Part shown: positions 23,934-61,927 of the stretch, in pieces
How the letters are laid out: every line of letters begins with the position of its first letter
How positions within the stretch are numbered: the first letter of the stretch is position 1
From: Halomarina litorea
GTDB lineage: Archaea > Halobacteriota > Halobacteria > Halobacteriales > Haloarculaceae
Reading direction: 5' to 3'
Length of the DNA stretch: 64,000 nucleotides
NCBI RefSeq assembly: GCF_024227715.1
Contig: NZ_CP100448.1
Location: forward strand, 682,001 to 746,000
Notes under the pieces: model-generated
What the model was told of the DNA's origin: nothing
The model's input: only the letters and a program-made list of their open reading frames with translations
Database searches by the model: none
Program-made: the position numbers and the translations under genes

Positions 23934-25379
23934 CTACTCGTCGGTCGCGCCGACCTCGGCGGTGTCCTCCCCCTCCGTCTCCGCGTCGTCCTCGCTCTCG
24001 TCACATTCCTCGTCGCGGGTCGCTCCGCTCCCCGCTCGGTCATCCGAGGCCTCCCCGTGGTCGGCCTCGCTCTCCTCGTCCTCCACGACGACCAGCCCGC
24101 GGTTGTTCACCGCGTAGGGGTCCAGCCCGACTTCCTGCAGGAACTGCTTGTACTCGCGTTCGCACTGTTCTGCGTCCTTCTGCTTGTCGCTGGCGCGGTC
24201 ACAGAGGGCGAGGAGGTCCTCGGGAACCTCCTCCTCGTGGACGATCCAGTGGTTGATGAGGTCCGAGAGCCGCCGGATGGGCGAGGTGAAGTGGCCGTAA
24301 ATCTCGAAGTTGAGCGCGTGGTGGCCGCCGAAGGGGTCGTTCATGTACTTCGCGCGGGGCATGACGCGCATCACGGCGCGCTGTATCTTCGAGAGCTGTC
24401 GGCCGGGGGCCTGTTCGAGCGTGGCGTTGACCGCCTTCCGGGGGTCGTCCCACGAGTCGCCGGGGATGGAGACGCCGTCGAGTTCCTGAATCTCCTTCAG
24501 CGCCTTGTCCCACTCCTGCGGGGAGGGCTGGGGGTGGACGCGGTACATCGCCTCGACGCCGCGCTGGAACATCAGGACGTGCGTGACGGCCTTGTTCGCC
24601 TTCAGCATGCACTCCTCGATGATGGTGTGCGCGCGGTCCCGACTCGGGTTGAGGACGAGCGACCCGTCCTCCTTGCGCTGTTCGTGCATCTCGTTGGCGA
24701 GTTCGAACACCATCGCGCACTCCTCGTGCAGGGGCGAGTCGGGGTCGTCGAGGCGCTGTTCGGCCTGCGTGTAGGTGAGGCGCTCGTCGGAGTTGATGAC
24801 GGACTTGTAGATGTCGATGGACTCGTAGGAGAGCGTCTCCTTGTCCACCTCCATCTGGACGGTGTGGGCCAGTCGGTCCTCGTTGGGGACCAGCGAGCAG
24901 ACCGTCTCGGCGAGGACGGGCGGGAGCATGTGGATGGTGTAGGCGGGGAGGTAGACGGTGTTCCCGCGTTCGACGGCCTCGGCCCACATCGCGCTGCCGG
25001 GGTGGACGTAGTGGGTCACGTCGGCGATGTGAACCCACAGCGTGTACGTCTCCTCGTGTTCCTCGATGGAGATGGCGTCGTCGAAGTCCTGTGCGTCGAT
25101 GGGGTCGGTCGTCCACGTCGTCAGGTCTCGGAGGTCCTTCCTGCCCTCGATTTCGTCCTGAATCTCCTGCTGGACGCCCTCGGTCCGCTCGCGGGCCTCC
25201 TCGATGACGGGTTCGGGGAACTGGTCGCGAATCTCGAACTTCTCGAAGAGCTGTTCGCGCTTGTTCTCGAGGTGGCGGGCCAGTTCCTCGTCTATCTCGA
25301 CGGGTCCCTGTCCCTCGGCGGTGCCGGCGGCCGCCTGCGCCGCTCGCTTCTCGTCCTGTTCCTGCTCGGAGTCGCTCAT
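23934..25379 (-). CDS. rnr: Minimal RNase R/RNase II-type 3'-5' exoribonuclease
   Basis: A 481-aa protein consisting almost only of an RNB catalytic domain (about residues 70-410). The metal-binding Asp cluster is DPIDAQDFDDAIS. Other blocks are YTLWVHIADVTHYVHPGSAM, NTVYLPAYTIHMLP and NFEIYGHFTSPIRRLSDLINH. The cold-shock and S1 RNA-binding domains of bacterial RNase R are missing, as reported for haloarchaeal RNase R. The last 60 residues form a very acidic low-complexity tail. It would degrade RNA 3' to 5' and is thought to serve where haloarchaea lack an exosome. Confidence 0.92.
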   Translation of the reverse strand: MSDSEQEQDEKRAAQAAAGTAEGQGPVEIDEELARHLENKREQLFEKFEIRDQFPEPVIEEARERTEGVQQEIQDEIEGRKDLRDLTTWTTDPIDAQDFDDAISIEEHEETYTLWVHIADVTHYVHPGSAMWAEAVERGNTVYLPAYTIHMLPPVLAETVCSLVPNEDRLAHTVQMEVDKETLSYESIDIYKSVINSDERLTYTQAEQRLDDPDSPLHEECAMVFELANEMHEQRKEDGSLVLNPSRDRAHTIIEECMLKANKAVTHVLMFQRGVEAMYRVHPQPSPQEWDKALKEIQELDGVSIPGDSWDDPRKAVNATLEQAPGRQLSKIQRAVMRVMPRAKYMNDPFGGHHALNFEIYGHFTSPIRRLSDLINHWIVHEEEVPEDLLALCDRASDKQKDAEQCEREYKQFLQEVGLDPYAVNNRGLVVVEDEESEADHGEASDDRAGSGATRDEECDESEDDAETEGEDTAEVGATDE

Positions 25380-25523
25380 GGGGGGGCTAACGGAAGCGAG
25401 CAGTTAGGCGTATCGGGCCGGGCGTGGCTCCGATTACAAAAATTCGAGGAGAAAGCCCACGGCTTTAGTCGTGGGATGAATCCGACAACAGACCAACAGT
25501 CTCTCCGTCCCACCACGGCTTAG

Positions 25524-25946
25524 ATCGCCGTGGGCGACCTCGGCGGTATCCGTGAGGGCAACGACAAGGGACGGCATTTCAACGACAAACTCCACAAAAT
25601 GCCGTTCGCCAAACTCCTGTCGTACATCGAGTACAAGGCCCACCGCGAAGGTGTCGTGGTGGTGTTGGTGGACGAAGCGTACACGTCTCAGACGTGCAAT
25701 CGGTGCGCCGAGAGGGGTGTGCGGAACACGCAGGGCAGGTTCTGGTGTCCGCACTGTGGCTTGGACGACAACGCGGATAAAAACGGCGCAACGAACATCG
25801 GCAAACGAGTGTTGGGCAAGTTCTCGAAACCGCTGTCCGACACGGGGGCCGTACTGGCTCGGCCCGAAACTCAGGTCGTCGTTGAACCTGAGAACTCCCA
25901 AGATTCCGTGGGCCTAACCCTCAGTGAGGGAACCTCACGACTTTAG
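25524..25946 (+). pseudogene. tnpB: Truncated TnpB (C-terminal third only)
   Basis: About 140 residues instead of roughly 400, with a TAG at 25521-25523 just upstream. It keeps IAVGDLGGIREGNDKGRHF, the RuvC-region YIEYKAHREGVVVVLVDEAY and the zinc ribbon CNRCAERG...CPHCGLDDNADKNGATNI with its RuvC-III-like D-x-NGA.NI element. Missing are the N-terminal wedge/REC region and the first RuvC Asp, so no nuclease is possible. The stop TAG (25944-25946) lies inside the right-end hairpin. Confidence 0.8.
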
Positions 25947-25958
25947 TCGTGGGAGAAG
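25850..25958 (+). ncRNA. Probable omega/sotRNA region at the TnpB 3' end
   Basis: In IS1341-type genes of Halobacterium, sense-overlapping transcripts cover the tnpB 3' end, and in TnpB systems the omegaRNA ends at the element's right end with the guide beyond it. Here the 3' coding end and the two right-end hairpins (25918-25930, 25936-25951) are intact. The 5' boundary is a guess. Confidence 0.45.
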
Positions 25959-26258
25959 TCAGTCCCCGCTTCGCAGCGACCCGTAGCGCTCGCGGACGAG
26001 TTCGTCGTAGCGCGCGAGGAACTCCTCCTGTGTCGCAGGGCCGTCCGCCTCCACGTCGACGAGGAGGTTCTCCAGTTCGTCGCGAGGCTGGTGACAGAGT
26101 TCGCGGTGACAGGTCTTGCAGACGTGTTCGAACTCCTTGCCGCGGCGCGACCAGCGGTCGCCCTCCTTGTCGTACTCGCGGGCCGCCGAGCGCTCGACGG
26201 ACCGGCCACAGGCGACGCAGTCGACCCGGTCTTCCCCGCGTTTCCGCGAGCCCCACAT
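25959..26258 (-). CDS. Small zinc protein (DUF7562-like)
   Basis: A 99-aa protein from ATG 26258 (MWGSRKRGEDRVDC); an in-frame ATG 27 bases upstream is less likely because the family begins MWGSR. It has two CxxC knuckles (CVAC, residues 14-17, and CKTC, 46-49) plus His/Cys in HRELCHQPRDELE, followed by a helical C-terminus (ATQEEFLARYDELVRERYGS). It resembles haloarchaeal DUF7562. Its stop abuts the right end of the TnpB remnant, so the last residues may have been altered by the insertion. Confidence 0.8.
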   Translation of the reverse strand: MWGSRKRGEDRVDCVACGRSVERSAAREYDKEGDRWSRRGKEFEHVCKTCHRELCHQPRDELENLLVDVEADGPATQEEFLARYDELVRERYGSLRSGD

Positions 26259-26364
26259 ACTACTCGGGCCTACGTGTGTGCTCACTTAGCCTTTTTCGAC
26301 TCGGCAGTCGCGGGTCGCACGTCGGCCGCCGCTCGTCTCTCCCGGACCGCCCCGGTCGCCGGTC

Positions 26365-61858: not shown

Positions 61859-61927
61859 ATGGCAGACAACATGGAGGATAGGTCAAGTCGCCGCGAGGCG
61901 GCTGGCCGGGAAATTCGACGGTTCTAG
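61859..61927 (+). CDS. 22-codon upstream reading frame
   Basis: ATG 61859 to TAG 61925 encodes MADNMEDRSSRREAAGREIR plus RF. It would be nearly leaderless given the TATA position. Codon use (GAT, AGG, TCA, AGT, ATT) is unlike the surrounding genes, which suggests a leader peptide rather than a functional protein. It contains no Leu, Ile or Val codon except one ATT, so a classical leucine attenuator is not supported. Confidence 0.4.
   Translation: MADNMEDRSSRREAAGREIRRF

What the first reader, a model, noticed from the sequence alone, without database searches (positions are those of the whole stretch)
25456..25964. TnpB reduced to its C-terminal third but with the guide-RNA end intact
The fragment keeps the zinc ribbon, the 3' coding end and the right-end hairpins from which omega/sotRNAs are made, but it cannot be a nuclease. 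If transcribed, the RNA would read directly into the 3' end of the convergent zinc-protein gene, giving a guide matching its own locus. A full TnpB elsewhere could load it, or the RNA could act alone, as proposed for Halobacterium sotRNAs.
Basis: partly seen in the sequence, partly recalled or inferred. Interest (0 to 1): 0.5.

Follow-up and report, generated by a model that had tools for sequence, protein, structure and literature searches.

The report
Core-deleted TnpB transposon keeping its guide-RNA end
A small jumping gene in a salt-loving archaeon has lost the middle of its DNA-cutting enzyme but kept both of its ends, including the part that would be copied into a guide RNA; it looks like a recent, probably inactive leftover of a kind already described in such microbes.

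Summary
Window 25438-25962 is a 525-bp IS200/IS605-type element next to a TTAC target. It keeps the left end as well as the right end. About 1.16 kb between them is missing compared with full-length relatives, leaving TnpB residues ~219-386 of 386, without RuvC-I. A covariance model built without the window scores its right end 114.9 bits; 26 of 26 alignable pairs are intact, three by double changes.

A guide read from this end would match its own locus, but there the sequence is preceded by TCAG, not TTAC. No TTAC-preceded match exists in the genome, so the only proper target is the lost empty site. No close TnpB (best 42% identity) and no Y1 TnpA was found in the genome. The element is absent from this site in 7 of 7 congeners. 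Its closest copies, in other families, are also truncated. Best reading: a recent non-autonomous deletion derivative, a known kind (Haloquadratum PATEs).

Side findings: the insertion swaps a convergent gene's TAA stop for TGA in phase, a recurrent pattern; and haloarchaea carry conserved TnpB-less mini-elements with a covarying omegaRNA-like RNA.

The parts
25434..25437 (+). TTAC target / TAM-type tetranucleotide, outside the element
   Evidence: TTAC (rarely TTAT or TTGA) directly precedes the left end in nearly all of 34 relatives printed (by eye)
25438..25520 (+). Left end (LE) with near-terminal palindrome at 25456-25475
   Evidence: aligns with left ends of full-length elements, about 41-87 nt at 72-91% identity
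25521..25524 (.). Internal deletion junction (about 1.16 kb missing relative to full-length elements); TAG stop at 25521-25523 closes the frame upstream
   Evidence: LE and tnpB body lie ~1.24 kb apart in full-length relatives and 79 bp apart here; junction sequences printed, no direct repeat could be assigned because the parent sequence is unknown
25530..25946 (+). TnpB C-terminal fragment, 138 aa from a GTG, frame open
   Evidence: PF07282 E 1.6e-21; 72-73% aa identity to the closest named full-length TnpBs
25845..25962 (+). omegaRNA (sotRNA-type) scaffold and right end (RE), ending TCAG
   Evidence: R1 114.9 bits, E 4e-27; 26 of 26 ungapped pairs standard, 3 gapped, 3 kept by double change; sub-threshold HgcC match, 28.9 bits, E 1e-4, gathering 50
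25963..25982 (+). Sequence that would be the guide; antisense to the last codons of DUF7562
   Evidence: position relative to RE; no TTAC-preceded match in the genome; that guides start right after RE is established knowledge of TnpB systems, not tested
25959..26285 (-). Convergent gene DUF7562 (zinc protein); its TGA stop (25959-25961) lies inside the element
   Evidence: PF24443 E 1.9e-41; joining the flanks gives ...RSGE-TAA, the occupied site gives ...RSGD-TGA
23934..25379 (-). RNB-domain exoribonuclease gene, divergent left neighbour
   Evidence: PF00773 E 3.1e-89; neighbour pair conserved in 7 of 7 congeners

Best explanation
A recent non-autonomous deletion derivative of an IS200/IS605-family element carrying an IS1341-type tnpB. 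An element of a subfamily that is spread by horizontal transfer among haloarchaea inserted 3' of TTAC, exactly in the TAA stop codon of the convergent DUF7562 gene. The stop became TGA in the same phase, so the neighbour was hardly harmed (last residue E to D). An internal deletion then removed (or had already removed) the interior from ~80 bp inside the left end to TnpB codon ~218. Both DNA ends, which TnpA needs, and the omegaRNA scaffold, which overlaps the right end, remain. With no TnpA and no cognate TnpB found in the genome it now most likely does nothing; if transcribed, its RNA would be an orphan omegaRNA whose only proper target, the TTAC-preceded empty site, is absent from its own genome. 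Shown: anatomy, ends, deletion, target, stop swap, no close partners found. Inferred: order of events, horizontal spread, present inactivity.
For: LE and RE both present, with ~1.16 kb missing between them. Window against its closest copy L182 (93%, another family; itself an independent internal deletion with a frameshift, at a different TTAC site): 29 differences in 412 coding positions, 20 at third codon positions (p 1e-4), so most divergence arose while the gene was intact and the deletion is recent. No Y1 TnpA in the own genome. Nearest own-genome TnpB match 42% identical, next scaffold 32.9 bits. Element absent between RNB and DUF7562 in 7 of 7 congeners. Core-deleted IS605-type elements in haloarchaea are described in print (PMC3119063, passages).
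Against: The 138-aa frame has no stop and no frameshift and the scaffold has no broken pair, so no decay is visible yet. Scaffold differences to L182 are fewer (4 of 119) than upstream (26 of 318), but not significantly so (Fisher p 0.09). PMC3119063 reports strain-specific IS605/PATE insertions in a strain whose tnpA copies are all disrupted, so lack of TnpA is not proof of immobility. The assembly is 98.4% complete, so a partner could lie in missing sequence.
Confidence: 0.8

Rival explanations
1. Orphan omegaRNA that works in trans: transcribed from an internal start, loaded by one of the other resident TnpBs, and guiding it to the empty site on incoming or sister DNA, so the deleted element is still kept by homing.
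For: Scaffold intact. The genome has about eleven other TnpB loci (12 further PF07282 matches, two of them parts of one locus), several full length. In Thermococcus kodakarensis HgcC RNAs start inside transposase genes and two of five detected are not linked to a transposase (PMC4247193, passage).
Against: No cognate: best resident TnpB match 42% identical, best other scaffold 32.9 bits. No TTAC-preceded target in the genome. No transcript data.
Confidence: 0.07
2. Stand-alone or antisense RNA: a transcript from the element reads into the 3' end of DUF7562 and acts on its mRNA, or the RNA has its own role as proposed for Halobacterium sotRNAs.
For: Geometry: the element points into the convergent gene and ends in its stop codon. 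TnpB-less relatives of the RNA occur as conserved elements elsewhere.
Against: Insertion found in one species only, 0 of 7 congeners. Folding of this copy is only mildly better than shuffled (z -1.80, 13 of 200 shuffles as good). No promoter evidence was obtained.
Confidence: 0.08
3. The C-terminal TnpB fragment is expressed as a small zinc protein (binding RNA or blocking TnpB).
For: 138-aa frame open from a GTG; differences to L182 mainly at third codon positions.
Against: The third-position bias is expected from the time before the deletion. A TAG lies three codons before the GTG. The same region is frameshifted in L182.
Confidence: 0.04

Closest known systems
Core-deleted IS605-type elements and PATEs of haloarchaea (Haloquadratum walsbyi; PMC3119063, passages read)
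   Same: Near-terminal palindromes at both ends, no inverted terminal repeats, no target duplication, conserved targeting oligonucleotide, interior deleted. [quoted passage not shown]
   Different: Here the remaining frame is open, the omegaRNA scaffold is shown to be intact, and the element is single-copy. The passages seen do not discuss omegaRNA.
Full-length TnpB elements of the same family in Halomicroarcula, Halorientalis, Halorubrum, Natrinema and others (among loci L046-L076)
   Same: LE, RE, TTAC, up to 72-73% aa identity over the fragment
   Different: Full 385-386-aa TnpB and ~510 bp between LE and the start codon, both missing here
sot0042 / sot2652 (Rfam RF02656, RF02657) and HgcC (RF00062) RNAs
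   Same: Overlap the 3' end of tnpB and the right end; HgcC matches over its whole length
   Different: HgcC match is below gathering (28.9 of 50 bits), and RF02656/RF02657 do not list this right end even at E 10

Membership tests
IS200/IS605-family element (tnpB-bearing, IS1341 group) | tnpB homologue | tested here: met
   PF07282 E 1.6e-21, C-terminal fragment only
IS200/IS605-family element (tnpB-bearing, IS1341 group) | subterminal palindromes at both ends, insertion next to a fixed short target, no duplication | tested here: met
   joined flanks restore an intact gene end
IS200/IS605-family element (tnpB-bearing, IS1341 group) | Y1 transposase TnpA available | tested here: not met
   none in the element; PF01797 has 0 matches in the own genome, while it rings in 5 of 14 controls. 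tnpB-only members are an accepted part of the family (established knowledge)
Functional TnpB RNA-guided nuclease | complete RuvC site (I, II, III) with WED/REC part | tested here: not met
   only residues ~219-386 of 386 present
omegaRNA | conserved structured scaffold at the tnpB 3' end | tested here: met
   R1 114.9 bits without training on the window; 26 of 26 ungapped pairs
omegaRNA | transcribed, bound by TnpB, guides cleavage | not testable with these tools
   needs RNA-seq and pull-down
PATE (palindrome-associated transposable element) | near-terminal palindromes, no inverted terminal repeat, too short to code for a transposase, derived from IS605-type | tested here: met
   525 bp with LE and RE palindromes; longest tnpB frame 138 aa
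PATE (palindrome-associated transposable element) | multiplied or mobile as such (homogeneous PATEs) | tested here: not met
   single copy in its genome

The most novel reading that the evidence does not exclude
The window element is an early member of a real class: TnpB-less IS200/IS605-type elements that move and persist as bare omegaRNA carriers. In this class the RNA acts in trans with foreign TnpBs or on its own, and the enzyme gene is dispensable. The class includes a covarying 270-330-bp family with an extra 5' RNA domain in at least seven haloarchaeal genera, and a 437-bp family with five young copies in Halorutilus.
Probability: 0.12. Interest if true: 0.75.

Novelty: new member of a known kind. 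Interest (0 to 1): 0.36.

Why it matters
By itself it is one more degenerate transposon. It matters as a pointer. Right ends with an intact omegaRNA scaffold but no TnpB are not rare in haloarchaea: of 19 scaffold matches of at least 50 bits in 59 genomes, 10 had a full TnpB, 2 only the C-terminal third, and 7 none recognisable in the DNA held around them. Some of these are conserved, covarying elements. That makes the old question of whether sotRNA/omegaRNA can work without its own TnpB directly testable in cultivated strains.

Tried and rejected
Looked for a close full-length parent in the own genome, in 59 relatives, in 391 genomes of the class, in GTDB contigs, plasmids and viral contigs (none). 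None was found; the closest copies (L182 93%, L209 94% over 192 bp, L105 91% over 105 bp) are all truncated. One search scored only two candidates per genome, so a parent may have been missed.

Rejected: 'truncated from the 5' side' (LE is present). Rejected: self-targeting guide (no TTAC at its own locus). Considered a selected small protein; the codon-position bias is explained by history before the deletion.

Tested whether the scaffold is better conserved than the rest (4 of 119 against 26 of 318 differences): not significant (p 0.09). Single-sequence folding gives only z -1.80. Rfam gathering search of the window: no omegaRNA family. Paper search for IS605 + stop codon + TTAC + insertion: 0 papers. 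Among the first 15 of 135 papers listed for HgcC/TnpB/IS605/omega RNA, none mentions HgcC. Neither search proves absence from print.

Full report
What is there. The window lies in a 3.88-Mb haloarchaeal genome (98.4% complete). At 25530-25946 a 138-aa frame encodes the C-terminal part of TnpB (PF07282, E 1.6e-21). It matches residues ~219-386 of a 386-aa relative and is 72-73% identical to the closest named full-length proteins.

Both ends are present. In most of the full-length elements among the 60 GTDB loci, a left end of about 41-87 alignable nt lies about 1.24 kb upstream of the stretch that aligns with 25524. In the window the left end is only 79 bp away. Printing 34 left ends and 34 right ends side by side (read by eye) puts the boundaries at TTAC|25438 and at 25962 (TCAG). 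Full-length copies end in TCAG (the family ~72% identical to the fragment) or TCAC (the ~54% family). The element is thus 525 bp long with about 1.16 kb deleted.

The insertion site. Joining the flanks gives the DUF7562 gene ending ...RYGSLRSGE-TAA; with the element it ends ...RYGSLRSGD-TGA, the TGA being the reverse complement of the last bases of the right end. The element therefore sits exactly in the stop codon and replaces it in phase. The neighbours RNB and DUF7562 are adjacent in 7 of 7 other genomes of the genus, none with the element between them (the genome-wide matches also lie elsewhere). Three of the seven have long intergenic regions (L107, L110, L111) without a match to this element.

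The RNA. A covariance model from 24 relatives, without the window and L105, scores the window right end 114.9 bits. Of its 29 pairs, 26 are alignable in the window; all 26 are standard and three are kept by changes on both sides relative to the main family. The structure was derived from relatives, so it is not circular for the window, but alignment A3 was fitted to the model. Alone, the sequence folds only slightly better than shuffled (z -1.80, 13 of 200 shuffles as good). Rfam: a sub-threshold match to HgcC over the whole model (28.9 bits, gathering 50, E 1e-4). The H. salinarum sot families find other right ends in this genome, all below their gathering scores, but not this one.

Partners. 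The own genome holds 13 PF07282 matches including this one. The best TnpB is 42% identical to the fragment. The next scaffold scores 32.9 bits. No Y1 transposase was found. A guide starting at 25963 would match its own locus, but the four bases before it are TCAG. A genome search for TTAC plus 14 guide bases with up to three mismatches gave the locus itself (two mismatches, both in the TTAC part) and three others with two or three mismatches, while the reversed control gave four matches, that is, chance. So the usual logic of these elements applies: the only proper target is the empty site.

Age. The closest copy, L182, from another family, is 93% identical over 431-433 bp. It is also an internal deletion with a different breakpoint, keeps TTAC and ~20 bp of the left end, has a frameshift, and also sits in the stop codon of a convergent gene, an ATP-dependent DNA ligase by its sequence (recognised by eye, not searched)...YDEQ-TAA to ...YDEH-TGA. 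Of 29 differences in 412 coding positions 20 are at third positions (p 1e-4). The two copies therefore diverged mostly as working genes and lost their interiors late. L209 (192 bp, 94%) and L105 in H. rubra (105 bp, 91%) are shorter remnants.

How it most likely works. It does not, at present. It is a non-autonomous derivative that TnpA could in principle still move, with an RNA scaffold that could in principle still be made. PMC3119063 (passages) describes such core deletions of IS605-type elements in Haloquadratum, calls the products PATEs, and reports most tnpB copies there as disrupted. PMC12558985 (abstract, passages, section 4.3; [quoted passage not shown] PMC4247193 (passages) reports HgcC RNAs starting inside transposase genes and two that are not linked to any.

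Wider view. Among 59 genomes, 19 matches to the scaffold model reach 50 bits: 10 have a full TnpB in one piece, 2 have the C-terminal third only (window, L158 in H. rubra), 7 have no TnpB recognisable by a 12-protein profile in the DNA held around them, about 1.5 kb each side or more. The first look scored 57 candidates per genome, so these are lower bounds. Weak tblastn pieces of 54 aa or less remain at two of the seven (L163, L165).

Three of the seven (Halomarina PSR21, Halorutilus salinus, G041) belong to a family of 270-330-bp elements with TTAC, left-end palindrome, a conserved core and a TCAG right end. Further members or parts lie in Salinirubellus, Natrialba magadii, Haladaptatus (2), Halobellus (right end lost), Natribaculum and at a contig end in H. 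rubra. None of the ten has a TnpB within the DNA held, about 1.5 kb each side, less at the contig end. In a nine-sequence alignment 12 of 39 predicted pairs show double changes; in one helix three adjacent pairs are changed on both sides in two sequences, Natrialba and G041. Separately, Halorutilus has five copies of a TnpB-less element of about 437 bp, 91.6-96.6% identical to one of them, at different sites, with a sot0042-like right end (49.8-58.5 bits, gathering 88). These are leads for the 'RNA alone' idea, not proof.

Stop-codon pattern. Across 71 distinct right ends of this family, 16 close a convergent, GC3-rich frame of at least 80 codons in the stop phase, against 3 and 2 in the other two phases; of 1188 TTAC sites in the same loci 42 do (Fisher p 2e-8). 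A looser count gave 22 against 8 and 5. In the window itself, where TTAC is rare, 13 of 41 sites fall in that class by the looser count, and the background includes sites inside genes, so selection against harmful insertions may explain much of it.

Verdict. Observation partly confirmed, interpretation partly supported, ordinary in kind, with two side observations worth following.

Noticed in passing
window 25434-25437 with 25959-25962; L182 1928-1931; 71 right ends: TTAC target plus TCAG/TCAC right end means that insertion into the TAA stop of a convergent gene leaves a TGA stop in the same phase. 16 of 71 copies sit so, against 42 of 1188 TTAC sites.
   Followed up: partly
L224 1328-1646, L221 1326-1602, L243 1501-1780, L244 1501-1779, L233, L245-L248, L223: A family of 270-330-bp TnpB-less elements in at least seven haloarchaeal genera, with a covarying RNA (5' domain plus omegaRNA-like 3' domain); no feature annotated under the plasmid matches where annotation was available; no Rfam family at gathering threshold in the members scanned (L221, L224, L233).
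   Followed up: partly
L216-L220 (Halorutilus salinus): Five copies of a TnpB-less element of about 437 bp, 91.6-96.6% identical, at different sites, with a sot0042-like right end (49.8-58.5 bits). None of seven TnpB loci examined there (of 13 PF07282 matches) shares that right end.
   Followed up: partly
own genome C1:14288-14473 (L235): A second solo sot0042-like right end (43.4 bits) without TnpB within about 1.5 kb.
   Followed up: partly
window 25845-25962; L221: HgcC (RF00062) of hyperthermophiles matches this right end over its full length below threshold, suggesting that HgcC RNAs are omegaRNA-type right ends.
   Followed up: partly
window 25530-25556: The RuvC-II region reads VGDLGGIRE, and full-length relatives also have GD where TnpBs usually have ED (recalled); the catalytic glutamate may be displaced in this family.
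   Followed up: no
window 61867-61919: leuA-Halobacteria RNA leader (RF03001, 60.2 bits).
   Followed up: no
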